DNA of 64,000 bases from Stercorarius parasiticus (lineage: Eukaryota; Chordata; Aves; Charadriiformes; Stercorariidae): assembly GCA_013396915.1 (NCBI GenBank), contig VWZL01005203.1, forward strand, positions 124,001 to 188,000, written 5' to 3'. The position numbers were made by a program, and so were the translations under genes. Under the pieces are notes generated by a model that was not told the origin of the DNA, did no database searches, and was given only the letters and a program-made list of their open reading frames with translations. Shown here in pieces: positions 2,437 to 45,039 of this stretch. Numbering within the stretch: the first letter of the stretch is position 1; every line of letters begins with the position of its first letter.

Positions 2437-2497
2437 ATGACATCTACATTTTTGCTCATTGGTCATCTCATTCTACTGATACCTCTGTTCAGTGCTG
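2437..2497 (+). CDS. IL1R1: IL1R1 coding exon 1: signal peptide
   Basis: Encodes a hydrophobic leader of 20 residues beginning MTSTFLL. The donor G|GTAAGT leaves phase 1. Confidence 0.88.
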
Positions 2498-17400: not shown

Positions 17401-19643
17401 TATAACCTCTTCATATTTGGGAGGGATGATTTACCAGGAGAAGGTAAGCTATCTGAAGAAAAATTACACTCAAGTTTTCTCATTGGCAGCTGCAAATGAG
17501 GGAGGGACTCTTTATCAGGGAGTGGAGCAATAGGACGAGGGGTAACAGTTTTAAACTGTAAGAGGGGAAATTTAGATTAGATATTGGGAAGAAATTCTTT
17601 ACTGTGAGGGTGGTGAGACACTGGAACAGGCCGCCCAGAGAAATTTTGGATGTCCCATCTCTGGAGGTGTTCAAGGCCAGGCTGGATGGGGCTTTGAGCA
17701 GCCTGGTCTAGTGGGAGGTGTCCCTGCCTATGGCAGCGGAGCTGGAACTAGATGATCTTTAAGGTCCCTTCCAACCCAAACCATTCTATGATTCTAAATG
17801 CAACTCAGAAACAGCCAATCAATCAGTGATTCTAAATGTCTCCTACCGTTGAATGAGCTATGATTTTCTTATTCTCTCTGATGGAGAATGAGAAATAGAG
17901 CACTGGGTGTTCCCATGAAGTCTGTTTATCTCAGCCTTTCCCTTGTCATTGTTTAGCTCTTCCAGGTTTTTTCAGTGTCTGGCTAGCCCAGGCATCTGGA
18001 GATGGAAGGATGCTGAGGGGAAAAGGAGTTGAAATTGTGGTTGTGAATGATGACTAATGGCAGGAAACGTGGAAAAGTAGGTCTCATGAGTGGTGTGAAA
18101 AGAGCCTGTTGCTTTGAGGTGCAATTTGACAGAATGACCTCTCTACCGTTTCATTTTTGTTTGCTCTGAGAATTGCTGTCAAACCAGCAGTATGCAATAA
18201 AGGGTATAATGGATGCTTAGACAGTTCAGGTAGACGAAAAAGAATACAAAGGAACAGCAAGTTACCAGGAACGATCGGCTGTATCAAAGACTACTTCTCC
18301 CTAGTGAATGTTCTTACAAAAGCGTTGCCTTCCTTGCAAGGCTTTAAAATTCTTCTGGAGGTTTCCTCTGTGTGCAAATGCATATTAAATTTAAATTTCT
18401 AGCATTTGATGCTGAAAATTGCAAAGTCTGTCCCACTGACTGCTTATGTGAGATAAAATGATGAAAATCATCTGAATCTTTCCTAGTTTTATGACTTTAA
18501 AAACATAATACTGAGAATGAATAAATTTGCAGAGCAGGCCTTTAATAGAAGTCCCTGTTTAAAAAAAAATTGGGTGTGAACAAACCTACATGAGGTGCTT
18601 CGTGGATCACTTTTTTATATCTGAAGGCTTTTGGTAATGGTTTGAGAAGGAAAGGTTCCCTGAGAAGTAGAATATAAAGTTCTGCTTTATTTTTCCAGCT
18701 TGAAAAAATGCGATAGTCGGTTCTCAGGATTAACCCATATGGGTTTTGTGTGGTATTTACCATATTTTGCTGTTTCAGAACTGATTGTCTGGAATGCTGT
18801 TGAAGGGAGGATTCTTTGTTTTCTCTTCCACTTACATGTAACAAAAACCAGTTAAGCATATCAGAACAAGTTAGTTAAGGAAAAAGGTCATAGTTTTATC
18901 TAGGCCTGTGGTTTTGGAACTTGTTTTTTTTTGCAGTTGCACTTATGATGGTAATAAAATGGCATTAGCAAGATAAGTAGTAGATAGTTGGTAGCTCTTC
19001 TCTCATTATGCAAAACAAGAATATAGACAAGCAATCTGATGGCATCAGATTGTGTTGCATTGGCCAGATCTCTCCTTGATGACTAACCAAATGTCACTGT
19101 TGGCATGCTCTTACTCTGTCCCTATTTGTGAAGTAAAGTGTGTTGGCTCAAGTATCAAACAGGGAATGAACCAGGCTGCAACATAGAATCGTTGAATGGT
19201 CTAGGTTGGAAGGGACCCTGTTGGTAACAAAAAATAGAAACATACAGCCTTAATTTTGCACAACCTTTTTCTCTACAGCTGTGATCAGCATTGCTGATGA
19301 AAAAATCCGTCAAAGTAGAAGAGTGATAATTGTTTTAGTACCAGAACCCTCCTGTTACAGTGTTCTAGAAGATGTGTCTGAAAAGCATCTAGCAATGTAT
19401 AATGCTCTTATCCGAGATGGCATTAAAGTAATTCTCATTGAACTTGAAAAAATACAAGATTATGCAACCATGCCAGAATCCATTAAATATATTAAGCAAA
19501 AGCATGGGGCTATCCGATGGAAAGGGGACTTCTCGGAAAGGTCTCACTCAGCACGTACTAGATTCTGGAAGAAAGTGCGCTACCACATGCCATCCAGGAA
19601 AAATGGATCTTCGTCACAATTGCATTTGTTACCAAAAGACTAA
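2437..19643 (+). CDS. IL1R1: Interleukin-1 receptor type 1 (10 coding exons, 552 aa)
   Basis: Single-pass receptor for IL-1 alpha/beta that pairs with IL1RAP and signals through MyD88. Coding exons are 2437-2497, 4196-4427, 6476-6665, 7578-7752, 8944-9003, 11377-11497, 14323-14468, 16077-16220, 17279-17443 and 19279-19643. They total 1659 bases, keep one frame across nine GT/AG introns and end in TAA. Residues 1-20 are a signal peptide, about 21-328 form three Ig domains with several N-glycosylation sequons, about 335-355 span the membrane, and about 379-535 form the TIR domain. TIR landmarks are YDAYVLYPK (383 on), GRDDLPGE (ending 431) and FW (527-528). The juxtamembrane FKIDIVLWYRDSC is typical of IL1R1. 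Length is close to the human protein (569 aa). The sequence closely matches chicken IL1R1 as I remember it. The start codon is the first ATG after the UTR acceptor. Introns hold CR1 copies at about 9.55, 13.35, 14.6, 17.5 and 19.2 kb, and an assembly gap lies in intron 5. Confidence 0.95.
4196..4427 (+). CDS. IL1R1: IL1R1 coding exon 2: Ig domain 1
   Basis: Residues 21-98. Starts EECVIC after AATAG and carries NLTWYKNGS, RIHQREGLLWFIPA and the Ig signature DSGLYEC. The donor AG|GTAAGG leaves phase 2. Confidence 0.93.
6476..6665 (+). CDS. IL1R1: IL1R1 coding exon 3: Ig1-Ig2 junction
   Basis: Residues 98-161. Contains VFKNDNGLCFNGKM and ends at EVHWYK with phase 0. It lies downstream of a TCTAATTACAG acceptor. 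The first codon is completed from exon 2. Confidence 0.92.
7578..7752 (+). CDS. IL1R1: IL1R1 coding exon 4: Ig domain 2
   Basis: Residues 162-220. Starts ECKPGF and has the Ig signature QDRGNYTCHMVYTYMGKKY. The donor G|GTGAGT leaves phase 1. Confidence 0.93.
8944..9003 (+). CDS. IL1R1: IL1R1 coding exon 5: Ig2-Ig3 linker
   Basis: A 60-base exon for residues 220-240, reading EFIYPKNNTIEVELG, a linker conserved across the family. Acceptor TGTTAG, donor G|GTAAGT. Confidence 0.9.
9545..9777 (+). mobile_element. CR1 LINE 3' fragment (IL1R1 intron 5)
   Basis: A 5'-truncated CR1 tail: the sequence runs through GGCTGCCCAGAGAAG and TCCCTTCCAACCTCAATTA and ends in the characteristic ATTCTGTGATTC. Moderately diverged. 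Confidence 0.85.
10441..10480. other. Poly-T run containing an assembly gap
   Basis: A T homopolymer interrupted by 17 N bases (10451-10467). The true length is unknown; open frames reported through it are artefacts. Confidence 0.95.
11377..11497 (+). CDS. IL1R1: IL1R1 coding exon 6: Ig domain 3, first half
   Basis: Residues 240-280. Carries the first Ig3 cysteine in VVMECNISSG and the core tryptophan in FWQVNDED. The donor GA|GTAAGT leaves phase 2. Confidence 0.91.
13349..14115 (-). mobile_element. CR1 LINE fragment, antisense (IL1R1 intron 6)
   Basis: Read on the - strand this is a CR1 3' half. The + strand starts with the reverse of the tail (ACAGAATCGTTTAGATTG), then shows the reversed 'TGGACACAGCCCTGAGCAAC' type region, and continues through the ATGAGGTCCTGTCAG block near 13974. 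It is about 760 bases and 5'-truncated. Open frames here are remnants or shadows of the element. Confidence 0.85.
14323..14468 (+). CDS. IL1R1: IL1R1 coding exon 7: Ig domain 3, second half
   Basis: Residues 280-329. Reads MPHGLAVSGTKFNIS and then FFCHFIYG with the second Ig3 cysteine. Acceptor ATGATAG, donor G|GTAGGA. Confidence 0.91.
14630..15080 (+). mobile_element. Old, degraded CR1-like LINE 3' region (IL1R1 intron 7)
   Basis: The order of words (ATTCCAATTTATTTGAAGCA, a 'tggaatactgtgcttcatttt' type run, AGAAGAGCAGTGAAAATGGG, GTGGAACAGACTGTCA) follows the layout of an ancient CR1 3' end, but with heavy substitution. The limits are approximate. Confidence 0.5.
16077..16220 (+). CDS. IL1R1: IL1R1 coding exon 8: transmembrane segment
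   Basis: Residues 329-377. A hydrophobic stretch (YLIGGGVSLVFLVFFTLFIY) is followed by the basic juxtamembrane run KMFKIDIVLWYRDSC. The exon is 144 bases, the same size as in the downstream paralogue. Confidence 0.93.
17279..17443 (+). CDS. IL1R1: IL1R1 coding exon 9: TIR domain, first half
   Basis: Residues 377-432. Contains TIR box 1 (KIYDAYVLYPK) and box 2 with the BB-loop sequence [11 protein letters not shown]1 copy starts about 50 bases after the donor. Confidence 0.94.
17497..17797 (+). mobile_element. Young CR1 LINE 3' fragment (IL1R1 intron 9)
   Basis: Begins GAGGGAGGGACTCTTTATCA, runs through TTTAGATTAGATATTGGGAA and GGTGTTCAAGGCCAGGCTGG, and ends in ATTCTATGATTCT. Nearly identical in its tail to the copies at 24533-24668 and 37081-37376, so this subfamily was active recently relative to the other copies here. 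Confidence 0.9.
19180..19224 (-). mobile_element. Short CR1 tail fragment, antisense
   Basis: About 45 bases of reversed CR1 3' tail (ATAGAATCGTTGAATGGTCT then AGGTTGGAAGGGACCC), ending some 55 bases before the last IL1R1 exon. Confidence 0.7.
19279..19643 (+). CDS. IL1R1: IL1R1 coding exon 10: TIR domain, second half, and stop
   Basis: Residues 432-552 plus TAA. Includes [29 protein letters not shown] and box 3 RFWKKVRYHMP. The short C-terminal tail ends LLPKD. Confidence 0.94.
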
Positions 19644-24520: not shown

Positions 24521-24532
24521 GTTGTTTGAATG

Positions 24533-24668
24533 GAGGTGTTCAAGGCCAGGCTGGATGGGGCTTTGAGCAGCCTGGTCTAGTGGGAGGTGTCCCTGCCCAT
24601 GGCAGGGGGGTTGGAACTAGATGATCTTTAAGGTCCCTTCCAACCTGAACCATTCTGTGATTCTGTGA
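24533..24668 (+). mobile_element. CR1 LINE 3' tail fragment
   Basis: 136 bases starting TGGAGGTGTTCAAGGCCAGG and ending ATTCTGTGATTCTGTGA. Same young subfamily as the copies at 17.5 and 37.1 kb. Confidence 0.88.
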
Positions 24669-25065
24669 ATGTTTGCTTTGCAAGAGTATTAAAGGTATTC
24701 TTCAGCACCTACATACTTTTTTTCTGTAGTTTTCCGCTTGCTCTTTTTAAAGTTCTTGTTTGGTTTTGTTCCCATGAACTCTCTAAAAATACAGAGAGAG
24801 GTGATTTGAACAAGGCATTGTATGTTTCATGTTTAGCATTTGCAGAGAACGGGCAGTCTCTTCTTACTGATTGTCTATAAACATCAGGGCCCCAAGGGCA
24901 CTAATGAGCCTTAGTGGCCCTCATCAACTGCACCTTGGACCCAGGAGGCCCATTTTAGCCCACCCTGTGTCCTTGCTGGGGACACCAGGACGAACCCTGG
25001 CTGGGGAGGAGCTGCCAGCCCATGTGGCATCCTGACAGTTAGGTAGTTAAGGTTCTCCGTATCGA

Positions 25066-25212
25066 ATGGACTTCAGCTTGACTTGGTACAGAAGTAGAAG
25101 CCAAATGCCTGTGATGAGAGGGAGCCAGTCCAGAGCACATCCCTGTGAGAAGCTGCTTTGGTTTGTTCTTGCAGGTGCAGACTGAGGAACCTGAGCAAGT
25201 GTCACACAGGAC
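25066..25212 (+). pseudogene. Relic exon 2 (Ig1) of dead IL1R-family gene
   Basis: Reading from 25069 gives DFSLTWYRSRSQMPV, then SRAH and EKLLWFV, then GAD, a stop and GT. This tracks IL1R1 exon 2 (NLTWYKNGS, PV, ARIH, EGLLWFIPA, EDSG). An in-frame TGA stands where DSG should be and another follows shortly. The 5' third of the exon is not readable. Confidence 0.75.
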
Positions 25213-26387
25213 GGAATGTCTTGTTCCCTCTGATTTGGATTTTGTTCCTAAATGCAAGAAAACAAAACAAACACACACATAAAAAAAAAACAAACCCAAA
25301 AAACAACAAAAGGAACTCTACCCAAAACCCAAATGGATTTTTTAGTGGTAATTCAGGAACACTTTTGTGCTTCTTTTCGAGAACACTGTTCTGATTTTTA
25401 CAAGGTTAATTTTGCTGCGGCTGGTACCCATCAGAGATCGGCATCTCTAATTACCTCAAGAATTAAGCTAGCTCTATGGTGAGAAATGTTTGAGCAAAGT
25501 TACGGTTCCAGCAAAGCTTTTTAAATTAAAGGTGATTTCATTCCTGGCAAGTTCGCTATTGTTCTCCTGCTTTTTTAGAAAGCCAGGAAGAAGGTGATGA
25601 CTCTGTTATGAGCATTTAACTGCATACAGGAGGTTTGTGTCCCATTTTGAGAGCATGCAGCTTCCTGGAGATTCTCTGGGAGCCTGGGCGCCCTGCCACT
25701 CTCTGGAGTCTGCCATTTGATAGACTTACATGTTAAGCTTCAAATGAATGTGATGGATGACTAGCAGACTTATCCAAAATACCTTCCAGTCAGCAGCAGC
25801 CCAGAGAAGATAACCCTGATATAAAGACCATTTTTCTACTGATGCAGGGGACTGTAGGCTCCGACTGACGGACAAGCAACCTGGCCAGCTTGTCCTTGTC
25901 ACCTGCCAGCTCGAGTCCTGCGCAGTGGCTCCGGTGCATGGATGCGGAGCAGTGCAAAGGAGAGTGCTGCACTACCGCTGCGCCTGCCTGCCTGCCCTGC
26001 AGAGTGGTTTCATTGCAGGATTCAGTTTTTTCAGTGGGTATGAGTGGTTTGTCCCAAGTTATACCTGATCCTGTTTTTCTTCTTTTGTCTGAAGTTTCTT
26101 ACATGATAGAAACAAAAATATGTAGCGAAACCAGAAAAATGAAGATGTGAGAGGGAGTGGAGGATGGCAGGAATAGTAACTATTCATTTTATGAGATTGC
26201 TTGTCTTGTGTTGGTACATCAGACAGCAGGGAATTCGCTTTTGAATCCAATGCTACTTCCCTAGCCTTGTGCACTGATTTCGTTAGACGTCAATGACAAG
26301 ATACTATTTAGGAAACAAGGATGAAATATTATAAATGTGACGCACCAGAATGCTTACTCAAGGGTTTTATTTTCATTACATGACAAG

Positions 26388-26563
26388 CTGTAACAAACTG
26401 TGTTTAAATGTCTTAGTCCTTAAGAATAATGCTGGCTTCTGTCGTCATAATGGATTTTATTATGATCAAGTGATACCAACACTGACAAGCCTGAATATTG
26501 TGCGTCCTTGTAAGTGGTGTTTCAGAGATGAGAAAGAATACTTTGCCCATTTACTGATATAGG
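26388..26563 (+). pseudogene. Relic exon 3 (Ig1-Ig2) of dead IL1R-family gene
   Basis: After a CAAG acceptor in the expected phase the frame reads CNKLCLNVLVLKNNAGFC, then NGFYYDQV and CFRDEKEY. This aligns with IL1R1 KLTVFKNDNGLCFNGKM and FKDEDN. It stays open almost to the end. The donor is degraded (AGG|ATGTAAG), and the tryptophan of the WYK end reads as a stop in a shifted frame. Confidence 0.78.
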
Positions 26564-26942
26564 ATGTAAGACATTACTATGACTGCCCCTACTTAATTTT
26601 TAAGTATGGGATTTATTTTATAATGTTTAGAACTCAAAAAGAGGACAGAAGGGGAAATGGATAACGATATGATCTTTTTAATAAGCAGTAGTGTAACTAA
26701 AATATTTTTAATTACTTAAATGCTTTGTGATTAAATTGAAACTAAAGCCATTTTCTTTTCAGCTTCAGCTTAAACAGTAAATGCATCTCGCTGTAAAAGG
26801 CAAAGATGTTGTTTATCTAAGAGGGGACTTTGTATATCAAGCTTTTGTATTTCTGGTTGTTTAGGTATGCTCAGCTATTTTCCCTTAACTTTCTAAATTA
26901 CATTTTAAAAGGACATCTTAATTTTATGTACATTTATCCACA

Positions 26943-27427
26943 GAATATCCAGCCTGGACAGGCTGGATCAATGGGCTGAGACCAATGGTATGAGGTTCAA
27001 CAAGGCCAAGTGCTGGGTCCTGCACTTGGGTCACAACAACCCCATGCAGCACGACAGGCTTGGGGAAGAGTGGCTGGAAAGCTGCCTGGCAGAAAAGGAC
27101 CTGGGGGTGTTGGTCGACTGCCAGCTGAATATGAGCCAGCAGTGTGCCCAGGTGGCCAAGAAGGCCAACAGCATCCTGGCCTGAATCAGGAAGAGTCTGG
27201 TGAGTAGGACTAGGGAAGTGATNAAAACTTTCTTCACTGAAAGGGTTGTCTAGCATTGGAACAGGCTGCCCAGGGACGTGCTGGAATCACCATCCCTGGA
27301 GGTATTTAAAAGACGTGTAGATGTGGTGCTATGGGACGTGGCTTAGTGGTGGTTTTGGCAGTGTTAGGTTGATGGTTGGGCTTGGATCTGAAAGGTCCCT
27401 TCCAACCTAGACGATTCTATGATTCTG
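26943..27427 (+). mobile_element. CR1 LINE 3' fragment inside the pseudogene
   Basis: Starts CCAGCCTGGACAGGCTGGAT, with the coding remnant words [17 protein letters not shown], and ends in ACGATTCTATGATTCTG. An internal deletion is marked by a single N at 27223. Confidence 0.88.
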
Positions 27428-27429
27428 TT

Positions 27430-30400
27430 CTATGAAATGTGGATGATAAAGTGATAGTTCACCTGGCTAGAATAGCTCTAGAAGTGAACGCTGCTCAGGG
27501 CACCTGGATCACATCACTGAGCCCCAGTACCCTTTCCTGCATGCCCTGTCTTGATGGACTGCTCTGGCTTTGCAGAGTTTGTAGCAGGCTTGTCGGCACA
27601 TTGTAGGGAAAACCAGCAGTTATCTATGACACGCAAAGTGGAAAATAAACAACAAAGTTTTCAGAGATGTCTTCACGTGAAAGGAATTCTATTTTTACCA
27701 GCAAAATTGCTTTCTGCATTCTTGAGAAAGACTATTATAGATTTTGAATTAAGTTCTTTATTTGTATTATCTGTCCATGTTTTAATAATTAATTGTTATT
27801 GCATCTAGGAATGTAATCTGCTTAAAGACAAAAGGTTTCTTAGATTGAGAGAGGATCTTATACTAACTGATACGACTGTAAAAGGAGTGGAGGGAATGAC
27901 TTATTCAAAATCACATATAATTGCTTGGGAAAACAATGTAACATTTATGTAAACGTTATTTGTCAGTCTAGTTTTCAGTCTTTTGTGTGACAAAGTGGTG
28001 CGATTCTGGGGATTTTCTATCATTTCTTTATCTAAATCCAAAAGCTTGACGTGATGATTGTCTGTATGGGGAATGTTGAATTGAAACACGCAAGAAAACG
28101 GTTTCCTTCAATTATAGTAATCCTTTCTAAAAGATGAAGTTATAATAGAAATATTAACAATCTGTTAATAGATTTGTGTTTTGTATTCTTAGAAGCATAT
28201 TCATTTTCAAATTCAGAGCCCAGGAACCCAGCCATTACCCAGTTACTCTTTATTTGGTGTTTGTCAGCAGATATGCTTTCCTAGTCAAATGATGTTGGTT
28301 ATGAGTGGAGAGTGAAAATTTGAGGTGAATATCACTGGCCTGGAAGTTCTGTCAACACTCGTAAGTTCTTGGAAGGCAAGTGTACTGAGTAACAAGCAGG
28401 TCACAGTATGTGGCAGTTGATCAGGCTGTGGAGCGGGAACGTGGGCAGTTTGGACACCTTCCGAGCATGGTATAGCACCTTCCTTGCCCTGGGAGTGGAA
28501 GAAATGCAAGTCCAGGCAGGTAAATCTTCTGGGGACAAGCCGAAGCATAAACAAAACCTTTGAGAGCTCTCCATGGCTGTAGCTGTATTACAGGACGTGT
28601 AAGTTCTTCAGTGCTGTTGAGCCTGGGTGCACACCACATCTGTATCCTGATCCCACACCAGGATATCGTGTGGATTCAAACCAGCTCTTTGGCTTTCCCT
28701 GGAAGAAAACCAAGTCTGCAACCAGAAGGCAGACATGAGCACGCTCTGACCAGGTCTCCAACACAGCCCCAGTATGCGTCCAGGTGACAAATGGTCAGTG
28801 CTTCTAGAAGCTGAAATATTATGAGAAGTTCCAGTGCAGACACTTGATTAAGATCGAGTTAAAGCTGCCAGCCTCTATTTTGTGCTGACCCCAAGGGAAT
28901 AAGCAGCAAAGACCCATCCTGTCAGCTGCTGGTCCTTCTCTTTTCAGTCCTTCTTTTCAGACTCAACTATTGCTTTATTCACCCAGGAGACCTGGGCGTT
29001 GCTCCTTGACTAAGAAATCTCTGTCCTGCCTAGGCTACCAGCATAAATATTGTTGTGGATTTTTTCCAACAAACCACTGCTATGACTACAAATCTTGAAC
29101 AATTACTAACAGAAACCAGCTGTTTGCAAAAGTCCTCCTTAATGTTACAGAAAGCGCTAATGTTTTCAGTTGGATTATTTATGTGCATTCGAAAAAGGCA
29201 ACAGGGAGTCACAGGAATCTGGAAGCTGTATCCGTCCATGCTGGTCCTAAAAACAGATGATTATTCAGTCAAGGGTGATGGTAAAGGTGCTTGCTTGTTT
29301 CTGACTTAAAAAGGAAATAATGGAAAGGCGGTAGCTGGGTTTAGATGATGAACTGATGAACAGGTGAGGTACTAACCAGCCAAAAGGTTATTTTTTAGTT
29401 TTCCTTTTTTTATTAACTGAATAATTTGAAGTCTGCTATATAGGATAGGTATCTCACAAGAAAGCTTTATTTTAATCTAAAATAATATTGTTCAGGTATT
29501 ACTAGTCACATAACAATGCTTTCTCCTCTTCTTCCCTAATCCATAATACTTTTGTTAGATCTCGTGGTCATCTTTTTTGGTCAATGCTACATTCAAACAT
29601 AGCAGCCCAAACAAGTAGAAAAGAACTTTAAAAAAAAAAAAAAGGTTATACCAAGTGCAAAGAACAAGAATTCAAATGCAGACCTGCTTTTTTGCAGTTC
29701 ATTAGCAAAACAGAATGTTAGTCTATCAGCTATTAGTGATATTTCTAGGCTAGTGCTATCCCACTTGTTTAGGCTAGTGCTTTTTTTTCAGGTAACATTT
29801 TGTATTTGTGGCTAGTTTCTTTCTATTTTATTTATTCTTAGAAACCCCTCACCCCTTCCGGAAGAAAATGAGCTCCTTTTTTTCCAAAAAACCCATATGA
29901 TTGGAATTAAACTTACCTCTTCCATCTGCAGGTCATAAGAAGTTAAATTTATGTCATTGATGTGCTTGATGCATTTATTGTTATTTTTTAGACTTGCTGA
30001 TATTAGAAAACCTTTTCCATACTTGCCCCAAGTTCTTGTATTTCCATTTGTGCTCACAGATAAAAAAAGGTTCCTTTGATTATGTATCTTGTGATATACA
30101 TACAAAGATAAGGAGTTTGTGTAGGCCTCCTACGCAGCAACAGTGATTTATAAGTTTTGCCTCCGTGGAACTTTGGGAAACTCAGAGTGAGGAGCATAAG
30201 GGGTAAATATCAGAGACACCCACCTGATGGGGAATATGCAAAAAGATTTCTGCAGAGGATCCCAGAGATAATGCCCTGCCTGTGCATATGCAGTGGTTTA
30301 ACCCCAGCCAGCAGCTAGGACCACACAGCCACTCACCCACTCCACCGGTTGGCATGGGGAAGAGAATCAGAAGAGTCAAAATGAGGAAAAACCCCTGGGT

Positions 30401-31320
30401 TGAGATAAAGATGGTTTAATAAGTAAAGCAAAAGCTGCGCACACAAGGAAAGCAAACCAAGGAATTCATTCGCTACTTCCCATCATCAGGCAGGTGTTCA
30501 TCAAAATACAAATACAAATGACTGCTGTGCTGTGCAGTCGGCTGGGTATGGCACTTGTCTAGGACCCAGGAGATCTAGTTTCATCCACCCTCTCTTTACA
30601 CACAGAAAAGGAGTACCTGTGATTTTTTAGCTTTTAAAAAGTAATTTTAAAAATATTTAAAAACGTGAACACACATTGGTGTATTATCTCAAAGATATCT
30701 TCCCCTTTACAAATCCCATTTATAGGCCGGCCTTAATACTCTAACATGTTAAATGGGCTTAATTGTGCATTAACTCAAGAACTGGAGAAGCTACCTGTGT
30801 AGATACTAAACAGAAACAAAGGTAGTGATTTTAAACAGCCCAAATGTATTAGATGCTGAGCTTGAGAATTTACTCATGCAAGTAATCCAGGTTATGTGTG
30901 TTACATATTACTTTGGCCAGCCCTCAACAGGAGCTACATATACTAGAACACTCACTCCTGTTTGTGCACAGAAACCCTGGGTTAGTCATACAGGATTAAA
31001 GGATTGCAAAAGTTCAGATTAGAGAGTGTTGGGCTTTCTCAGTGTCCCTTTAATACTTAACTACATAAATGCCGTTGCTTCTGGCTTAGCTGCCAAAAGA
31101 GGCTTTCTGACTATGTTAAACAGGAGAACAATTTGCAGGACTGGGGTCTTGAAAAGCAAACATAGTCTGACAAGGGAGCTAGAAAAGCCCCATATTTCTA
31201 AAAAACGGTTCCTTTGTTCTATCAAATTCCTCTCCAACTTCGTGCTGTTTCCTATCACTTGAATGGCTCAGGCTATGCAAAATTAAATAATGTTTAAGGC
31301 CACACTCTAATGGTGTTTTT
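27430..31320. other. Decayed intron sequence of the pseudogene
   Basis: Exons 4 and 5 of the dead receptor should lie here but none can be read with confidence. An antisense LTR fragment occupies about 30287-30501. The rest shows no recognisable coding or RNA feature. Confidence 0.4.
30287..30501 (-). mobile_element. Endogenous retrovirus LTR fragment, antisense
   Basis: The reverse complement matches the 3' part of the solo LTR at 39601-40186: both share the GGCTGTGTGGTCCTA...GGGTTAAACCA end and the GCAGCTTTTGCT block. Only the terminal roughly 215 bases remain; no coding sequence is present. Confidence 0.8.
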
Positions 31321-31323
31321 TAG

Positions 31324-31440
31324 AGTATAGTATCATTATAGATTGCAATCTATCAAGCTTCAAAGATAATTTACTTGCTGTACCCTAGAAAGTCAATAAT
31401 ACACTAGTCAGTTTTTTGTATAAAGGAGAGTCGGAGATGA
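31324..31440 (+). pseudogene. Relic exon 6 (Ig3 first half) with stop in place of the core tryptophan
   Basis: After a TTTTTTAG acceptor in phase 1 the frame reads EYSIIIDCNLSSFKDN, then LLAVP, a TAG stop, then KVNNTLV. DCN, KDN and VNNTLV coincide with human IL1RL2 as I remember it. The TAG occupies the place of the conserved Ig tryptophan (TGG to TAG). The donor GT is gone. Length is about 117 bases against 121 in both intact genes. Confidence 0.82.
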
Positions 31441-32251
31441 AGATTTGTAACTGTATTTGTATGTAGTTATCATCTGTTTCTGAATAAAAATATTTTTGGT
31501 TTCACTTTTGTCTTTGTTTCACAGTGTTTGAATTGGAGAAACACTGTCTCACTGATTTATAGAAGACTCCAGCAGAAAGCTAACATCATACTTCAGAAGG
31601 TATGGCTTTATAAGAGGGCATTTTGTCAAAAAGAGGATGTGACCTCTGTACATTATCTGTCTGCTTTACCATTACCCGTCTCACTCCGCTTCCCACACAC
31701 TCTGGTTAGACTTTAGCAGTCTGATAGCCCTCTTCACATCAGGATTTGGTCTAATACCTGCAGGCACAACTCCTGTGTGCCATTGGGCAGGCAGAACAGC
31801 ATTGGTATCAGGTTAGTGAGCATCAGTTGTCCACTCAGCTTATATATATTTTACAACTTTTTTAAAAAAAGGAAAATTTGGATACATGTGGTTGTCTTTG
31901 AGAGAGAGATGAAATTTTTAAGAGCTGGCCATGTGGTGAAATCCCAAGAGCTGTTAATGTTGTACAAGCCAGTTTCTCAGTCTCTTTCATCATTGGAGTA
32001 TGACAATGTGAGACTTTTGTCTATTTTGAATGAAATCTGAGACAGTGGCTGTGTGCAGCTATGGAGTACCTGGCCATAAAAAGCTCTGTTCATGGTTAAT
32101 TACTTATAGGTATACCAATCTAATAGAAATATTTAATATTCATAATCTTTGTTCTCTGTGTGTTGTGAAGAGATTTGAGTGATTTTCAAGTACTTGAGAT
32201 GATAAAACATGTCTTCCCCACTGTGCTCTCAAAACAGAGCCATTTTCTTAG

Positions 32252-32412
32252 CATCAACCTCTTTGTTTTCCTTTTTATCAACAAGATTCTTTTCTTGATG
32301 GATGATGCTTCTCTGCAGTGAAGCTCAATACCACAGAAGTGCACATAGAAGGCTACAACCACTACTTTGTGTGCCATACTGGCCATGTTGCAGCATACAT
32401 TGCTTTAAAATG
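32252..32412 (+). pseudogene. Relic exon 7 (Ig3 second half)
   Basis: From 32319 the frame reads VKLNTTEVHIEGY, then YFVCHTGHVAAYIALK, then a stop at 32412. The segment between the Ig3 cysteine and AYI is short, as in IL1RL2 and unlike IL1R1 or the downstream gene, which have several more residues there. The 5' limit is a guess from exon size. Confidence 0.78.
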
Positions 32413-32910
32413 ACTGTTATTAAAATAGTGAACACATCCCTAGTTAGGAACAACAAAGTTACCCCTTATTCCACTGTGTAACTGAGAACAATTAATGTGG
32501 AGGCTTGGACAACTGAACCTCTAGAAGGAATAGTAATTAAAACCAGAATAATTTAAGTCATGCATTCAGAGTAAGTATAGAAAGAAAGCATTGAAGTTGT
32601 ACCAAGCACTTGCTCCTAAGACTTTTTTTACCAGTAAGTGAACTGAAACGCTCTGTTCCTTTGCTTCTACTGAAGAAACTCACATGCTTTAATGACCTAT
32701 AGTGAAGTTCTTACCAAGAAGCTGGAATAATTGCTTGACTAGTTTTAAATAATAAAAAATCCTACCACAAGTGGGAGACTTGACTCTATGAATTGCCCAG
32801 AGAAATCCCTTTAGGCAAATTAAGGAGACCTACATTTCTGTGTCTTGCATTTGCTTGAAAGTTCCAATGCAACGCTTTCGTTATGTCCTTCTTTTCCTTT
32901 GCTGCTTTAG

Positions 32911-33058
32911 CTCAAAATTCTTGTGGTTGCTTGCTTGTGGGACTCCTTGCACTGGCACTTTTAACTGTTGCAAGACGGAAGTATTACTCTATACATTTTT
33001 AAAGACTGATGTCGTGCCTTGGCGTTAAAACTGCTGTCATCTTTGCCTGCAGAAAGGG
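32911..33058 (+). pseudogene. Relic exon 8 (transmembrane) of dead IL1R-family gene
   Basis: A TGCTTTAG acceptor is followed by a hydrophobic stretch reading LLVGLLALALLTVA. After a one-base shift the frame reads FLKTDVVPWR, then a stop and NCC. This matches the family pattern FKIDIVLWYRDSC with the tyrosine codon deleted. A donor GGG|GTAATG gives 148 bases against 144 in both intact genes. Confidence 0.78.
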
Positions 33059-33059
33059 G

Positions 33060-36000
33060 TAATGCTTGCATAATATCACACAGATAAAGTGCAGTATGTA
33101 TCCCTAGGACTGCTGAGAACTTTTTAACAAAGTAAGCAATTGTGAAGACTTGCAGGAGATGACCTCATGGCAGAATTTTGTTGGACTTCCCTGTGTTATC
33201 TCTTCACCAGCTAAATTGTAACACCCCCCGGCTCTGCCCTCCAGTTTTTAAGAGGGCTTCATCTCAAGCCCTGTAGACACAACTTTCTGCCAGTGACTGT
33301 CATGTGTATGTAATTACAAATGCACTTTTTTCCCTATCTGTGACCAAGAACTTGGTTGTGTGTTCCTGTGCAATGTATATATAGCAACTAGAAGGTCTGA
33401 ACTTGGGAAACATAAGATGGGAAGGGGCTTCCTCTGCCCTTTGGCTAGTTCATTCCCATCTCAGTTTTTCAGTTATATTTTCTCTTTGTGATTTATCATG
33501 CTTAATCCTAACGAAGTAGTTAGGTTTCTCATTTCCATTATTGCTGTTCAAGAATCTCATTTGATCTGATTCTTAGAAACTTGTAAATTTGTAGCTTTAA
33601 TGTATTAATTGACAGTTGAGACATATTCTTCTCCTTCATTGGCATCTACTGGATGTATTATTTATAGACAGCAGTTGTAGTCTGTCCTCAATTTAACCTA
33701 GACAAGCCAAACTAACTTAATCCTTCCTGAAAGGTAAGCTTCTCATTTCCCCTAATAAACTAGTAGTCTTCCATGAGAAGCGTCTTCAAATTTGTTAACA
33801 TGTTGACCAGGACAGTGCACAACATTTCAGCTGAAGTTGGGCTGGTACCCTGAATAGTGTTTTCGGGGTCCTAAAAAGAAGATGGATGTGTACAGAGGAC
33901 TTAGTGATCCACGTGAGAGCTGATGTGAGTAGATGCAAGCCTGAGCTGTGCTGACATGTACCAGGTGGGTGCAGGACAACCAGAGACAGCTCACCCTAAT
34001 GGAGAAGCCTGTAGGCAGCTCCCACTTGGCACCTGCTGGTGACTCCACCCACATGTCTCAGCTTACCTTGCAGAGAAACAGCCTGTTTTCGTACAGCGTC
34101 CTTTGCTTGGCAGTAGAGATAATGAATAGAGTTGTCTACTTCTAAGGACACCTCATAAAACTTCCAAAAGCTTCAGTGCTGGCAAATCTCCCCACAGACA
34201 GGATTTATGTGGTATGCCACACCCTGACTAGAGCTCTGCCCCACGCTGCACAGCTCCAAGTTCCCAGCACCTGAAGAAACATAAGATTATCTGTGCTAGC
34301 TCCTTTTACCTTCTCAGGTTATCTCCAATAAACTGAGTTTTAACCAATAACCCATGGAGTCTGAGCACCTTTCTCACTGGGATCTATAATGAACACTTAC
34401 ATTGGTGCACTGCCCTTGGTACTTCTCTAACTCTACTGGAAATAGTTCACCTGATTTAATAACTAGCATTTGCTAATTATTATGTTTTTTTTAATAGATA
34501 TAACATACTGGTTAGTCATGGGAATCTTGAGATCCAATTCTTCTCCTTAGTCTGTGATTCTGGATGGCAAGCCGTTATTTTCGTGTTAAAAAAAAAAGAG
34601 TGGTGTAATTTCTGAGAGCATGAAGAGCACACGAATAAGCATCGTTATGAGCCAGGCCTCTGGGTCACATACTTCTAACTGTTGTGACATTGGTAAATTA
34701 ATAGGAAAACTTCAATTTTTTTCTGCTGACAGGACTGATGAAAACATTGATATGAAGGCAGAGGCTGATGCCCTGGGAGTTCCCTCCATGACAGTAACTA
34801 CTGCCACACCTTGCCTCTTCCTTTTTCAAGCATCTGCTGTCATCTTTCACTAGCTGGCTTCCCAGTCAGCCTTGCAATTCTGGTTTTGTGATATAAATCA
34901 GCTTTCTCCGCTGTACCATGATAATTGGTTTCCAAGATGAAGGCGATAAGGATACTGAAACAAAACAACAGACTAATGTGATGTAACTGAACACTGCAAC
35001 ATTACTTTTGTATTTTCCATTTCCAATTTTCCACTCCCATTTTAACCTTTCTGAATCAAAAGATTTTGCATACCCTGCAGCTTACAGTTTGATTGTTTCT
35101 TAATATTTCTTCCTCAATAGAAGATTTTCTGTTCTCCAATTGTATAATATATAATATTTTAAAAAATAATGTAGAATGTTTATTTCTGCAGAAAAGCTTG
35201 TCTGTTCCTCCAACTATTTTAGACGCCCAAAGAAAGATATTACCTCTTGCAGTCGCTCTTGCTATGCTTCAAGGTGACTCACTACTGGACCTGCAACTTC
35301 ATACACCAGTTACTCTGGAATTTAGGATAGAAACTGCTTGGCCTTCCTGAAATAAATATGCAGAAAACTTGAGAATTTTTCTTTTATCTTAGTTATCACA
35401 ATTTCCTGGATCATATCTTTATTTCTATTAGCCTTGCTGCCTTCTCCTCCCATAGTTGCCAATACCTTTCTCAAAGGAGATGAGAGCATTAAGGTGGCTT
35501 TGTGGCCACATATAATTCTTTTGCTCATTCTGATTGCACTGAATTCTGATTTCATTGGCCATTTTTATAGCTAAAGAATATTTTATTAAATGTTTCAATT
35601 TACCTTGTGAAACTGAACTCCATCCGACTTTTGCCAGTGCTTGTGGTTATGACCTTGAAAACAGATCTTTGTTTACCAGTCAGTTCCATGTCCCATTTCT
35701 CTAGATTCTCCCAGCTGAATTTCAAGCCTTTCAACCTGCAGGTAAAGTAGGAGACAGTAAATTTTTTGGAAGCATGAAAACCAATGAATCATAGATTTTG
35801 CCATAAAAAGTGTGCCTAGCTTTTCTACTAGAAACCTGTTAGAGTTACAAATTACTTCCTGTGCTCTACTGGTGAATAATTTGTAACTGCAAGATGTTTG
35901 ATTACCACACTTACAAGTCCAGAGAAATTCTTGTAAGATGGATGTCTGCAAGATGTAAATGCTAAGCTTGTTGCTCAGTGTTAAAACCAAAGGTGGGATT

Positions 36001-36315
36001 GATCGGTAAAATGGAATTACACATTCTCAGCACTGCAAGCACATTTAGATGGCCTTGACATTCCCAGTATTCTGGTTTGGGATGACAAGTATCAAAACAG
36101 ACTCTTTTATGTAGCTTTAACTGCATCTAAATAATTACCTGCAATTACATTTCTTTATATTTTCTTCCAGTTTTAAAAGTTTTGTACGTACAACAATATT
36201 CTTAATGTCTTCATCAAAGCTGTCTTGTGCAACATAGCTTTAAGCAGAAACGGCAGAAAAATATACACAAAGGGCTTTAAAATTCTGTTAGGTTTTTATT
36301 TGCCCTGTTCAGTTT
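33060..36315. other. Intron 8 of the pseudogene
   Basis: No further exon, RNA gene or clear repeat recognised between relic exons 8 and 9. Confidence 0.4.
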
Positions 36316-36318
36316 CAG

Positions 36319-36480
36319 ACGAAAGAGATATACGATGAATACCTATCGCAGACAAAACCAAAGTATAAGATTGTGGCTACAAACCACATAGTTTTGCCCC
36401 AAATATACTTCCGGATGTCTTAGAGACACAGTGTGACTATAGTCTCTTTTCACGTAGAAGAGATGATTTACCAGGAGCAG
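36319..36480 (+). pseudogene. Relic exon 9 (TIR first half), length preserved
   Basis: Flanked by TTTCAG and G|GTAAAC, it is 162 bases, exactly the length of exon 9 in the downstream gene. The ends are in the original frame (3' part ILPDVLETQCDYSLF, then RRDDLPGA). The middle is shifted (YDEYLSQTKPKY) by offsetting indels, and an early TGA breaks the frame. The box 1 and BB-loop regions are still recognisable. Confidence 0.88.
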
Positions 36481-36741
36481 GTAAACCCCAAGATTACTGA
36501 ATACTATAATTTCCTTTACAAAAGTAGCAATTACTTACAAATTACTTACATTGTCACTTGTCCTAAAAAAAATCAGGGCAAACGTTGCCCTGATTTTTGC
36601 AAGTTAAATCAGTTCGGGTGGAGGACCTGGTGTCCACACAATGCATGTTTCAAGAGACTTTATTTCAGACTAGCTGCTGTCTGGTAGCACGTCCAAGTAG
36701 TTGGAGCTCATCTTCAAGTTTTGCGTCATCCGAAAGGAATC

Positions 36742-37377
36742 TGTTCCATGGGCTCCAGGACATCTTCGATCAGCATCCTGGGCTGCATCAAAAGAAGAGT
36801 GGCCAGCAGGTCAAGGGAGGTGATTCTAACCCTCTATTCCGCTCTTGTAAGACTTCACCTGGAGTACTGCATCCAGCTTTGGAGTCCCCAACATAAGAAA
36901 GACATTGATATGTTGGAACGGATCCAGAGGAGGGCCACGAAGATCATCAGAGGGCTGGAGCACCTCTCCTACGAAGACAGGCTGAGAGAGTTGGGGCTAT
37001 TCAGCCTGGAGAAGAGAAGGCTCTGAGGAGATGTTATAGCAGCCTTCCAGTACCTAAAGGGGGCCTACAGGAGAGATGGGGAGGGACTCTTTATGAAGGA
37101 ATGGAGCGATAGGACGAGGGGTAATGGTATTAAACCAAAAGAGGGGAGATTTAGATTAGATGTTGGGAAGAAATTCTTTACTGTGAGGGTGGTGAGACAC
37201 TGGAACAGATTGCCCAGAGCAGTGGTGGATGCCCCATCCCTGGAAGTGTTCAAGGCCAGGTTGGATGGGGCTTTGAGCAGCCTGGTCTAGTAGGAGGTGT
37301 CCCTGCCCATGGCAGGGGGTTGGAACTAGATGATCTTTAAGGTCCCTTCCAACCCAAACCATTCTATGATTCTATGA
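36742..37377 (+). mobile_element. CR1 LINE 3' fragment between relic exons 9 and 10
   Basis: About 635 bases. Contains the block for [17 protein letters not shown], then [18 protein letters not shown] and [11 protein letters not shown], then the tail with TTTAGATTAGATGTTGGGAA and the end ATTCTATGATTCTATGA. Frames are interrupted but divergence is low. Confidence 0.92.
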
Positions 37378-37739
37378 CTGTTTGATGATACAAAGTGTGG
37401 GGGGCGGGGTTGAGAGTGAGATCTGCGCTCTCCTAATCCAAAAAAAACTGCTAAGGCAGCCACATGTATACACTCAAAGCAGATGAATACATGTGAAAAG
37501 GGAAAGTTGTTAATATTAGAAATTGTGGAAGACAAGTGATGTTGAAAGCTGGAACAAAACTACAGGAGGATGTAGAAAAACAAGAGGTTTGTGGTAATGA
37601 AAGGCAATGGTCTGAATTCATCCCAGGCAACCTCCATCCCATCCCTACCTAAGTGAATACTCTCCCTCTGACATCCTTCTATGTGTAACTCAAAAGAACT
37701 GAATTATTTATTGCAGGTAACATTCTGCCTTCATTGGTT

Positions 37740-37870
37740 ATATAATGTTTATCAAATAAATAAAGCAGATGCATGCCATCATCTGATGGAAAAAGGACTT
37801 CACAGTGACATCTGATTCAGCAAATACATTTTGGAAAAATGCAACATACCAAATGCTGTCCCAAAGTCCA
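37740..37870 (+). pseudogene. Relic 3' part of exon 10 (TIR second half)
   Basis: The bases AATACATTTTGGAAAAATGC and the following ATACCAAATGCTGTCC align with the box 3 coding region of the downstream gene ([11 protein letters not shown]). Before them, GAAAAAGGACTTCACAGTGA matches its GAAAGGGGACTTCTCAGAGA. The first two thirds of the exon are missing; a young CR1 copy now sits between relic exons 9 and 10. Confidence 0.75.
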
Positions 37871-37879
37871 GTCTCTTCA

Positions 37880-39595
37880 TTTGCACACAAGAAGGCTTTT
37901 TTGAACACCTCCTGAGCTGCAGAAAGATAATCCACCTCACGATCATTGCTCTGTTGCAACCCATTTTCAAAGATGGCACTGATAAGTTGTATTAGAGACC
38001 TCCCTGCGCTTATTACAACAGATCATTCTATCTTAGAGCTTTATGAGACAAAATACTTTTGTCTGAATGTTTGTGTAGATTTAAAAAAAAAAAAAAGGTA
38101 AATTCCATTCCACATACCTGATGAGGAGGATGTTTGGATAACTCCTTGTTTAGCATCACCCTCATTGCCGGAGCTGGTGGTTCTTGGTCTGCTTTGAAGT
38201 GTTCCTGGTGACCACATCAAATGTTCATGCAGACTTGTGTCAATGGCTACTTTCCTCGGACAACCCACTTCTCTGCTCTTCCCTGAGATTTTTTTCTTGT
38301 GACTGCCATGTTCTGTATATTTTGCTGTCGCATGAAATTCAGACATTTCACTTGATATTCCTTCAGCTTTCCTATAGTATGTTTTTTCTAAATTCTGATT
38401 CGCATCAATCACTGAATAGTTGAATGTCTGAATAGTTCTAATTTTACCTATTCATTACGGTAATGTTGTAACATCTTTTATACTGGAAACCTTTTTAACA
38501 GAAACATTTTTTCACTATTAGTAGTATTATAATGAAAACAGGAGAAAAAAAAACTAACCACCCTGCATACAGCAGAACCTCTAGTGTATATGTCTCAGAA
38601 AGAATTCTTAAAAAATGAATTTTTTAAAAAATAAGTGCTTCTAGAAAAGTGTAATAGAGTAGATTAGGGAACACCTCGCTTGCCTTTATGATAGATTTAA
38701 TTCAGAGATGTTTGGTGGTGGTGCAAAATAACAATACAGAAACTAGAAATCTTGCATAAAAATTATTTGACCTAATGCAGTAAGTTCATAAGAAACATTT
38801 CCAAAAACGAAATTTGGATATAACTGCTGACTGAAGAGAGACTAGCTGACTGCATAAATGCTGCTGTCTTCGCTGAGCCAGGAATGAATTAATTCTCTGT
38901 GTTCCTCCCAACAGCATAACGTCTGGAGCTGTTACAACATGCCTCCAGCCAGCACTATATACCTTGCATTGATAGAGGCCAATATATGCAGACATAGCAG
39001 GGCGTAATCTCTCATCTTTGTTTATCTGTGGCTACCACATGGTGGGCAGGATGGTTGAACATGTTTCCGTTTGGTAAATGCAATAGTACCAGAAAGTGGA
39101 ATGAAAGAAGTACCAGAAGTAGAATGAAAAATCCGGGTGGAAGGAGCAGGACATGTCTGGATTATTCTCCCCAGTTTTTGCAGAATATTTGTAATTTGAT
39201 TAATAATCTGTTTATGATGTATTTTTAACAATAATGAGAACACCTACCTTGATAATTCTAAAAGGTCCATGATTGCTGCCTACTTTGGGAGGAACCTAAG
39301 AAAGAGCTTTCCTCTACCTTATTATCTATTTCAGTAGTTAGTCAAAGTATAGGTGACAACGCAGCCTTAAAAATGCCTACATACGATTCTGTGTTCAACA
39401 TGTGTTTACCATGCTACATTTGAAGAATTTCTACTTTGAAGAACTCTGACTCCAGCTGTGACGTGAGTGCAACAGAGAACTAAGAAAGACCAGAATATAG
39501 TGAACATACTGTTCCCAGAACAGCCACAATCTAAGTAACCTTTAAAAAATGCCAGGGTTACTTAATAGTTGTTAAGTTTGTAAGTACAAACTTAG
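37880..39595. other. Spacer between the pseudogene and the solo LTR
   Basis: No gene recognised. A 123-codon open frame on the - strand (38041-38412) has no recognisable domain. Confidence 0.4.
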
Positions 39596-39600
39596 GGGCT

Positions 39601-40186
39601 TGTCACAGTTTCAGCTGGGATGGAGTTAAATTTCTTGCTAGCAGCTGGTGTAGTGCTATGTTTTGGATTTGAGATGAGAAATAGTGTTGATAGTGCACTT
39701 GTGGTTTTGGTTGTTGCTAAGTACTTTTCTGCCCCTCACCCCACCCCACCCCACCCCACCCGCGAGCAGGCGGGGGGTGCACAAGAAGTTGGGAGGAGAC
39801 ACAGCCAGGACAGCTGATCCCAAGTGACCAAAGGGGTATTCCATGCCATATGATGTCACGCTCAGTATATAAAGGTTGGGGAAGAAGAAGGAAGGGGGGT
39901 GATGTTCAAAGTTCTGGCGTTCGTCTTCCTAAGTAACCGTTACACGTGATGGAGTCCTGCTTTCCTAGAGATGGCTGAACACCTGCCTGCCCATGGGAAG
40001 CAGGGAATGAGTTCTTTGTTTTGCTTTTCTTGTGCGTGCAGCTTTTGCTCTACTGATTAAACTGTCTTTATCTCAGCCCATGAGTTCTTCCTCACTTTTA
40101 CTCTTCTGATTCTCTTCCCATCCGAATTGGGAGAGTGAGCGAGCGGCTGTGTGGTCCTACTTGCTGCCTGGGGTTAAACCATGACA
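39601..40186 (+). mobile_element. Solo LTR of an avian endogenous retrovirus
   Basis: Starts TGTCACAGTTTCAGCTGGGA and ends TTAAACCATGACA, giving the TG...CA termini of an LTR. The flanking five bases are GGGCT and AGGCT, a target duplication with one mismatch. A TATA box (TATATAAAGG) lies at 39866. A CCCCA simple repeat sits at about 39738-39761. No retroviral gene is present, so it is a recombined solo copy. The family cannot be named from the sequence alone. Confidence 0.82.
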
Positions 40187-40469
40187 AGGCTAAATGGGAT
40201 TAAACCTGCATGTTCAAGCTTCAGAGCCAAATATCTCAGTGACATATGGCAGTCTGGGAAACTCAGACCAAGCTGCCGAAGTAGGCTATTGAAGAAGCAA
40301 ATAAAACAGCTGATGTCCCTGAGCCGCTCCTGCCAACAGCCTCCATAGTCCTGGAGGGATCTTTCACTGCCAGTGACAAGGTCCCTTCAACTAGGGACAT
40401 TTGCAGCTGCCCATACTACGAAAAAAAACAACCCCAAAACAGGTCAGTCACCCCAAATCTCGCAATCCT

Positions 40470-44720: not shown

Positions 44721-44975
44721 AACAAAAAACCAAAACAAAACCTGAGTGCTTGACAAGCTGAATAGAAAATGTTCACTCATTTTTTTTCTTCTGGTATAAT
44801 AATTAGCGACTGTCAGGTAAAACAGGCAGTTAACAGGCTCAAAACAAGCCAAAGACAATTCCTATATTTCTTGTGTCCTGTATTAACTGTGTAATGCAAA
44901 TGTTGACTTTCAATTGTGGATATTTATATTGGAAACTGATAACTGATGGTTTTCTTTCCTTTTTTGCAGGTAAAC

Positions 44976-45039
44976 ATGACAGCAAAAACATTGTTTTTGT
45001 GTAATATCACAACAGCATTGCTGTATTTAATTATTGCAG
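44976..45039 (+). CDS. IL1RL1: Second receptor, coding exon 1: signal peptide
   Basis: Hydrophobic leader MTAKTLFLC...LLYLIIA. The ATG lies six bases after a TTTTTTGCAG acceptor, so an upstream non-coding exon is expected. Donor G|GTAAGT, phase 1. Confidence 0.85.

What the first reader, a model, noticed from the sequence alone, without database searches (positions are those of the whole stretch)
25040..37875. A dead third IL-1-family receptor, probably IL1RL2 (IL-36 receptor), lies between the two intact receptor genes
Seven relic exons can be read in the correct order and strand with intron-sized spacing: exons 2, 3, 6, 7, 8, 9 and part of 10. All carry family motifs along with stops, frameshifts or lost splice sites. 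None is in a long open frame, so gene prediction would miss the locus. Position and sequence both point to IL1RL2. If correct, this bird lineage lost canonical IL-36 reception while keeping the neighbours.
Basis: partly seen in the sequence, partly recalled or inferred. Interest (0 to 1): 0.88.

Follow-up and report, generated by a model that had tools for sequence, protein, structure and literature searches.

The report
Dead IL-36 receptor gene in bird
Between two intact immune-receptor genes this bird's DNA carries the decayed remains of a third receptor gene of the IL-1 family, likely the counterpart of the mammalian IL-36 receptor, so this bird has likely lost a receptor that turtles and alligators still encode, although a published review says that chicken kept it.

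Summary
Eight relic coding exons (2, 3, 4, 6, 7, 8, 9, 3' part of 10) of an IL-1-family receptor lie in order on the + strand at 25063-37909 between two intact receptor genes (g1, g2). Each beats all 40 shuffles and the minus strand in a frameshift-aware alignment. They carry 5 in-frame stops and 7 frameshifts. The relic is no copy of its neighbours: six turtle/alligator "IL1RL2" (type B) proteins outscore the 38 others tested, the window's own two included. A tree joins it to alligator IL1RL2 (97/83); among solved structures its ectodomain hits human IL-36R best (E 3.7e-12); it has the short D3 loop of IL1RL2. Turtles have three such receptors; birds show types A and C. None of 26 type-B proteins among 250 fetched is from a bird, although type-C bird proteins are often labelled IL1RL2. 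A 2014 review says chicken has all human IL-1 receptors. Untested: shared lesions in other birds, dN/dS, other copies in this genome, and whether g2 took over IL-36-type ligands. Best reading: an old unitary pseudogene of IL1RL2; a bird-wide loss is inferred, not shown.

The parts
25063..25173 (+). relic exon 2 (first Ig domain), middle part; a possible scrap of its 5' part at 24851-24877 is marginal
   Evidence: score 92.0 v shuffle max 42.0; 5' scrap 4 of 200 shuffles
26380..26554 (+). relic exon 3 (second Ig domain, first part); frameshift +1 at 26530; acceptor reads TAC where CAG is expected
   Evidence: score 117.2 v shuffle max 39.7; lesions
   Evidence: score 103.8 v shuffle max 42.5
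31329..31427 (+). relic exon 6 (third Ig domain, first part); stop TAG at 31386; keeps the KDN...VNNTLV stretch seen in IL1RL2
   Evidence: score 95.5 v shuffle max 37.7
32282..32410 (+). relic exon 7 (third Ig domain, second part) with the short 7-residue loop (CHTGHVAAYI); stop TGA at 32303
   Evidence: score 119.8 v shuffle max 41.2; tblastn E 3e-12
32910..33055 (+). relic exon 8 (transmembrane); extra codon 32973, frameshift +2 at 32976, stop TAA at 33026
   Evidence: score 60.5 v shuffle max 41.2; weak in plain tblastn (26.9 bits)
36312..36476 (+). relic exon 9 (first TIR exon, RRDDLPG kept); frameshifts +1 at 36321 and -1 at 36367; splice acceptor and donor still readable
   Evidence: score 116.3 v shuffle max 43.7
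37751..37909 (+). relic exon 10, 3' part (end of TIR, FWKN kept); stops TAA 37757 and TGA 37784, one codon lost at 37829, frameshifts 37880 and 37893; 5' half not detectable
   Evidence: score 101.1 v shuffle max 48.3
2437..19643 (+). intact left neighbour g1, type A (IL1R1-like), ten coding exons, 552 aa
   Evidence: gene model; relatives; tree
44973..57331 (+). intact right neighbour g2, type C, nine modelled coding exons 48372-57331 (542 aa) plus a likely signal exon at 44973-45044
   Evidence: gene model; 5' exon hits; relatives; tree

Best explanation
Window 25063-37909 (+) holds eight eroded exons of a type-B receptor gene of the IL-1 family, likely the orthologue of mammalian IL1RL2 (the IL-36 receptor), which likely decayed in place between two intact paralogues. 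It keeps exon order and intron-sized spacing, so it is not a processed copy; it was most likely a working gene that lost function and has since drifted, which makes it a unitary pseudogene (inferred). The ancestor of turtles, crocodilians and birds likely had three tandem receptors: A (IL1R1-like), B (IL1RL2) and C (a paralogue not seen in the mammals examined); this bird keeps A and C. With B dead, no IL1RL2-type ligand-binding chain would be made here, and IL-36-type ligands, if any act in birds, would have to use C or another receptor. That last step is untested.
For: Eight exons in order, each above 40 of 40 shuffles. Five stops and seven frameshifts. All six type-B proteins rank above the 38 others in summed exon bits: 306-338, best other 278, g2 260, g1 232. 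Profile sums B 806, C 618, A 557. Tree: relic with alligator B 97/83, with turtle B 97/88, with lizard RL2 99/98. Relic ectodomain against solved structures: human IL1RL2 49.4 bits, IL1R1 32.7; alligator and turtle B likewise hit IL1RL2 best (204 v 163, 193 v 157), turtle C and g2 hit IL1R1 best (209 v 183, 187 v 170). Short D3 loop of 7 residues in relic, human IL1RL2 and 17 of 18 measurable type-B records, the eighteenth being measured in the IL1R1 half of a fused record; 11 residues in 130 of 132 type C and 76 of 88 type A. Loss of constraint: 24 of 77 invariant columns changed, against 0-3 of 77-80 in each of 25 intact proteins.
Against: Exon 9 fits type A better than B (129.3 v 116.3) and a 100-base piece of it is 77% identical to g1 exon 9; in plain tblastn exons 8 and 9 score best with lizard IL1R1; gene conversion or slow decay there is possible. 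The relic's place in the tree was found on an alignment guided by type B and the relic is a flagged long branch; guided by A and C only, it stays among type B but with weak support (81/42, and 57/43 with alligator). Trees do not settle whether mammalian IL1RL2 belongs with B (42/15), with C (p-AU 0.22) or outside both (0.48). No dN/dS, no other bird's DNA, no search of this bird's own genome (genome search did not complete). Pfam found no domain in the relic.
Confidence: 0.88

Rival explanations
1. The relic is a local duplicate of g1 (type A) or g2 (type C) that died, so no ancestral receptor was lost.
For: Exon 9 scores best with type A, and a 100-base piece of it is 77% identical to g1 exon 9.
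Against: Relic identity is 51% to turtle B (186/364) but 40% to g2 (143/360) and 38% to g1 (136/358); g1 and g2 rank far below type B; by exon the relic is 46-67% identical in DNA to g1 and 49-66% to g2, no closer than g1 and g2 are to each other (53-76%); it has the short loop that g1 and g2 lack.
Confidence: 0.04
2. The relic is a dead type-B gene, but type B is not the one-to-one orthologue of mammalian IL1RL2: B and C are equal co-orthologues, and the retained g2 is the bird IL-36 receptor. Then birds lost a duplicate, not the pathway.
For: B and C together form the IL1RL2 group with mammals (96/98); mammal + C and B + C without mammals are not rejected. At least 28 of 120 type-C relatives carry an IL1RL2-type name. 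IL-36RN is reported in chicken skin (PMC8742010, passages).
Against: Loop deletion shared by mammalian IL1RL2 and type B only; type C ectodomains, bird and turtle, match human IL1R1 better than IL1RL2, type B the reverse.
Confidence: 0.18
3. The loss is recent and limited to this lineage; other birds keep a working type-B gene.
For: Only one bird's DNA was seen; shared lesions could not be tested. The protein lists show the best 120 rows only.
Against: With alligator type B as query, the listed bird proteins score 574-616 bits, at the level of types A and C, while whole-length turtle type B scores 742-826; none of 26 type-B proteins among 250 fetched is avian, although the lists hold ratites, a tinamou, fowl, waterfowl and many neoavian orders.
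Confidence: 0.12

Closest known systems
IL1RL2 (IL-36 receptor) of mammals and reptile 'interleukin-1 receptor-like 2', type B (P0202, P0206, P0208, P0216, P0222, P0227)
   Same: Exon order, domain layout of the readable exons, short D3 loop, KDN...VNNTLV stretch, best match among solved structures, tree position
   Different: Five stops, seven frameshifts, exons 1 and 5 and half of exon 10 not detectable: no working product is possible from this copy as it stands
Bird g2 and its relatives (type C), labelled IL1R1, IL1R1-like or IL1RL2 in databases
   Same: Same receptor subfamily and cluster; wider IL1RL2 group
   Different: Intact; long D3 loop; ectodomain nearer to human IL1R1 than to IL1RL2
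Other immune-gene losses in birds, such as MDA5 (PMC8619217; title and abstract start seen in the listing only)
   Same: Loss of an innate immune gene in bird lineages
   Different: Another receptor family; here the decayed exons remain readable and a paralogue survives on each side

Membership tests
IL1RL2 (IL-36 receptor) orthologue group | Three-Ig, transmembrane, TIR exon series in family order | tested here: met
   Exons 2, 3, 4, 6, 7, 8, 9 and part of 10 in order, + strand; exons 1 and 5 not found
IL1RL2 (IL-36 receptor) orthologue group | Best match to IL1RL2 rather than other IL-1 receptors | tested here: met
   Ectodomain against all PDB chains: IL1RL2 49.4 bits, IL1R1 32.7; type B ranks first
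IL1RL2 (IL-36 receptor) orthologue group | Short D3 loop (7 residues between Cys and Tyr) | tested here: met
   Relic 7; human IL1RL2 7; type C 11 in 130 of 132, type A 11 in 76 of 88
IL1RL2 (IL-36 receptor) orthologue group | Falls in the reptile IL1RL2 (type B) clade | tested here: met
   97/83 with alligator, 97/88 with turtles, 99/98 with lizards; weaker when aligned without type B
IL1RL2 (IL-36 receptor) orthologue group | Type B is the one-to-one orthologue of mammalian IL1RL2 by tree | tested here: inconclusive
   42/15 for B + mammal; alternatives not rejected
IL1RL2 (IL-36 receptor) orthologue group | Lies next to IL1R1 in the receptor cluster | tested here: met
   Left neighbour g1 is type A (IL1R1-like); right neighbour is type C, not IL1RL1 as in man (human order from PMC4090809 section 12)
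IL1RL2 (IL-36 receptor) orthologue group | Binds IL-36 ligands | not testable with these tools
   No binding data; the copy is broken
Unitary pseudogene | Disabling lesions in a gene that keeps intron-exon layout | tested here: met
   Five stops, seven frameshifts, exons spread over 12.8 kb
Unitary pseudogene | Relaxed constraint | tested here: met
   24 of 77 invariant columns changed v 0-3 of 77-80 in 25 intact proteins; dN/dS itself not run
Unitary pseudogene | No intact copy elsewhere in the same genome | not tested
   The genome search was busy in 11 of 11 tries; indirect: no bird type-B protein among 250 fetched
Recent local duplicate of g1 or g2 | Nearest relatives are g1 or g2 of the same window | tested here: not met
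   Identity 51% to turtle B, 40% to g2, 38% to g1; summed bits lower for g1 and g2 than for all six type B

The most novel reading that the evidence does not exclude
The IL-36 receptor gene died in the common ancestor of living birds; the bird genes now called IL1RL2 are IL1R1-like genes or a third ancient receptor (type C) that mammals lost, so birds run their skin and mucosal IL-1 biology without IL-36R, and their IL-36 receptor antagonist has been left without its partner or re-assigned to the type-C receptor.
Probability: 0.5. Interest if true: 0.76.

Novelty: new member of a known kind. Interest (0 to 1): 0.62.

Why it matters
A 2014 review states that all IL-1 receptor genes of the human genome, IL-1RL2 included, are present in chicken (PMC4090809, sections 3, 12 and 15), and expression tables list IL1RL2 in chicken and goose (PMC5371264, PMC6214020; passages). 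If the real IL1RL2 is dead in birds, such labels point to other receptors, and the presence of IL-36RN in birds becomes a direct question: which receptor does it block? The relic also points to a three-receptor ancestral set hidden by gene names, and to a natural loss of a pathway that drives pustular psoriasis in people (recalled). The date and spread of the loss can be tested directly by reading one syntenic interval in other birds.

Tried and rejected
First thought, rejected: that g1 = IL1R1 and g2 = IL1RL2, hence nothing is missing between them (from exon-level PDB hits). The homologue lists then showed three receptor types in turtles, and the tree put g2 in type C. Search for exon 1, exon 5 and the 5' half of exon 10: nothing above shuffles; the hit in the last (LTLYSALVR, 36826-36852) falls in a repeat that I take from memory for a CR1 element. 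Pfam on the joined relic: no family. Rfam over 19000-49000: nothing. Bird gene models that had swallowed relic exons: none evident among 250 fetched proteins; the five best matches were reptile type B for exons 2, 3, 4, 6 and 7, reptile B, A and C for exon 10, turtle type A for exon 8, and for exon 9 lizard, turtle and some bird proteins, at most 79% identical over a short stretch. Viral contigs with alligator type B: no relative. ST2 ectodomain against the whole window: its significant hits lie on g1 and g2 exons, no sign of IL1RL1. Papers: PMC12108812, PMC5861070, PMC9020223, PMC8742010, PMC5371264, PMC6214020 seen as passages; PMC12954441 searched for IL1RL2, IL36 and interleukin, no occurrence; PMC4090809 seen as passages and sections 3, 12, 15. 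No title or abstract start listed by searches reports an avian IL1RL2 pseudogene; the library holds open-licence PMC papers only. PMC4090809 Table 2 puts chicken IL-1RL2 about 5 Mb from the rest of the cluster; I could not explain this.
Full report
What is in the window. Two intact genes were modelled exon by exon: g1 has ten coding exons at 2437-19643 (552 aa), g2 nine modelled coding exons at 48372-57331 (542 aa), with AG/GT at the splice sites and no internal stops. Database proteins of g2's relatives place further 5' exons at 42194-42253 and 44973-45044. g1 and g2 are 51% identical. Best relatives are bird proteins: g1 94% to Numenius and 95% to Cepphus, g2 94% to Gavia and Himantopus, so the window is from a bird, perhaps a shorebird (inference).

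The relic. tblastn of six reptile 'IL1RL2' proteins against 19700-48350 gave + strand hits in gene order from 25054 to 37927, the best with E 3e-12. The best of 100 dinucleotide shuffles reached 32.7 bits against 59.7 in the real sequence; reversed proteins reached 22.7. In this plain search exon 4 (33.5 bits) barely passes the shuffles and exon 8 (26.9) does not. A frameshift-aware alignment against a type-B profile found exons 2, 3, 4, 6, 7, 8, 9 and the 3' part of 10 with scores of 60.5-119.8; 40 shuffles reached at most 37.7-48.3 by exon, the minus strand at most 46.8. Exons 1 and 5 and the first 68 codons of exon 10 are not detectable above chance; a scrap of the 5' part of exon 2 is marginal. 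A repeat that I take from memory for a CR1 element lies between exon 9 and the rest of exon 10 (36802-37384).

Lesions. In-frame stops: TAG 31386, TGA 32303, TAA 33026, TAA 37757, TGA 37784. Frameshifts: 26530, 27884, 32976, 36321, 36367, 37880, 37893. One codon lost at 37829, one extra codon at 32973. The acceptor of exon 3 reads TAC where CAG is expected; acceptors of exons 4, 6, 8 and 9 and the donor of exon 9 are still readable (judged by eye). The single N in the interval (27223) lies outside the relic exons.

Which gene it was. Reptile proteins fall into three clades: A holds bird g1, turtle A and lizard IL1R1; B holds turtle, alligator and lizard IL1RL2; C holds bird g2, turtle 'IL1R1-like' and one gecko protein. 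Two turtles have A, B and C in records whose longest contig has the same length, so probably on one contig (Emydura P0190, P0202, P0204; Carettochelys P0194, P0208, P0210). The relic scores best with B: all six B proteins rank above the 38 others, g1 and g2 included, and the B profile sums to 806 against 618 (C) and 557 (A), best in seven of eight exons; exon 9 fits A better (129.3 v 116.3). In the tree the relic joins alligator B (97/83), inside B with turtles (97/88) and with lizards (99/98), the place expected of a bird orthologue. The program flags the relic as a long branch. Because that alignment was guided by B, I repeated it guided by A and C only: the relic still falls among the B proteins, beside turtles (81/42) and alligator (57/43), with weak support.

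Is type B the orthologue of mammalian IL1RL2? The rooted ectodomain tree puts mammalian IL1RL2 with B and C together (96/98), nearest B but with support of only 42/15; C + mammal (p-AU 0.22) and B + C without mammal (0.48) are not rejected. Other evidence favours B. The D3 loop between Cys and the conserved Tyr has 7 residues in 17 of 18 measurable class-B records, 11 in 130 of 132 class C and 76 of 88 class A; 12 of 250 records could not be measured, and the odd class-B record is P0195, where the pattern meets the IL1R1 half of a fused record. Human IL-36R and the relic have the short form. Alligator and turtle B hit human IL-36R best (204 v 163 and 193 v 157 bits against IL1R1), turtle C and bird g2 hit IL1R1 best (209 v 183; 187 v 170). 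The relic ectodomain hits human IL-36R best, E 3.7e-12, 49.4 bits against 32.7 for IL1R1.

Loss of constraint. At 77 columns invariant in 25 intact proteins the relic differs in 24; each intact protein, left out in turn, differs in 0-3 of 77-80. Intact type B is most conserved in its TIR exons (turtle-alligator 43/54 in exon 9, 33/62 in exon 3); the relic is about equally poor in both (25/51 and 24/57 to alligator). That is what drift after death gives. dN/dS was not run, because no coding DNA of relatives was at hand. From the relic's branch length (0.75 against 0.35 for alligator) and its stops, with recalled neutral rates, I would guess a death some 40-130 million years ago; this is rough and not a result.

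How wide is the loss? The alligator type-B search listed turtle, lizard and mammal relatives and bird proteins at 574-616 bits, below whole-length turtle B at 742-826. Of the 250 proteins fetched, 26 class as B, none of them from a bird; the 120 listed relatives of g2 all class as C. The lists hold ratites, a tinamou, fowl, waterfowl and many neoavian orders. So annotated bird proteomes seem to lack type B, but only the best 120 rows of each search were visible and no other bird's DNA was seen. At least 28 of the 120 rows for g2 carry an IL1RL2-type name, and a goose type-A protein is also called IL1RL2 (P0153).

Relation to print. PMC4090809 (sections 3, 12, 15) states that all human IL-1 receptor genes including IL-1RL2 are present in chicken, and that the softshell turtle has 'an additional IL-1RL2-like gene'; in our terms that fits turtle B plus C. 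PMC8742010 counts IL-36RN in the keratinocyte programme of amniotes from chicken skin data (passages). An IL-36 antagonist without IL-36R is the puzzle that this relic opens; whether g2 (type C) serves it is untested.

Verdict. The interpretation, a dead IL1RL2 between two intact receptors, is supported; the physiological consequence and its spread over birds remain inference.

Noticed in passing
40001-42000: GC-rich stretch (54.6% GC against 34-46% in the other 2-kb windows), between relic and g2; by place it may be the promoter region of g2.
   Followed up: no
42194-42253 and 44973-45044: Likely 5' exons of g2, the second with a signal peptide; both 75% identical to database proteins of g2's relatives.
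   Followed up: partly
48372-57331 (g2) and its relatives: Bird type-C proteins are named IL1R1, IL1R1-like or IL1RL2; at least 28 of 120 listed carry an IL1RL2-type name, so database names do not separate the receptors.
   Followed up: partly
17500-17796, 24531-24675, 26955-27426, 36802-37384, 45258-46085, 62486-62970: Related repeat pieces (68-95% identical) that I take from memory for CR1 elements; one lies between relic exons 9 and 10.
   Followed up: partly
30294-30500 and 39976-40181 (opposite strands): A pair of 83.6% identical copies of an unidentified repeat in opposite orientation.
   Followed up: no
36385-36484: Relic exon 9 is 77% identical in DNA to g1 exon 9 over 100 bases, higher than other relic exons; old gene conversion or slow decay is possible.
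   Followed up: partly
P0197 (Chrysemys), P0195 (Sigmodon), P0203 (Tupaia): Database proteins that look like chimaeras of neighbouring receptor genes (type A with a B-like TIR; IL1R1 fused to IL1RL2), probably gene-model errors in this tandem cluster.
   Followed up: no
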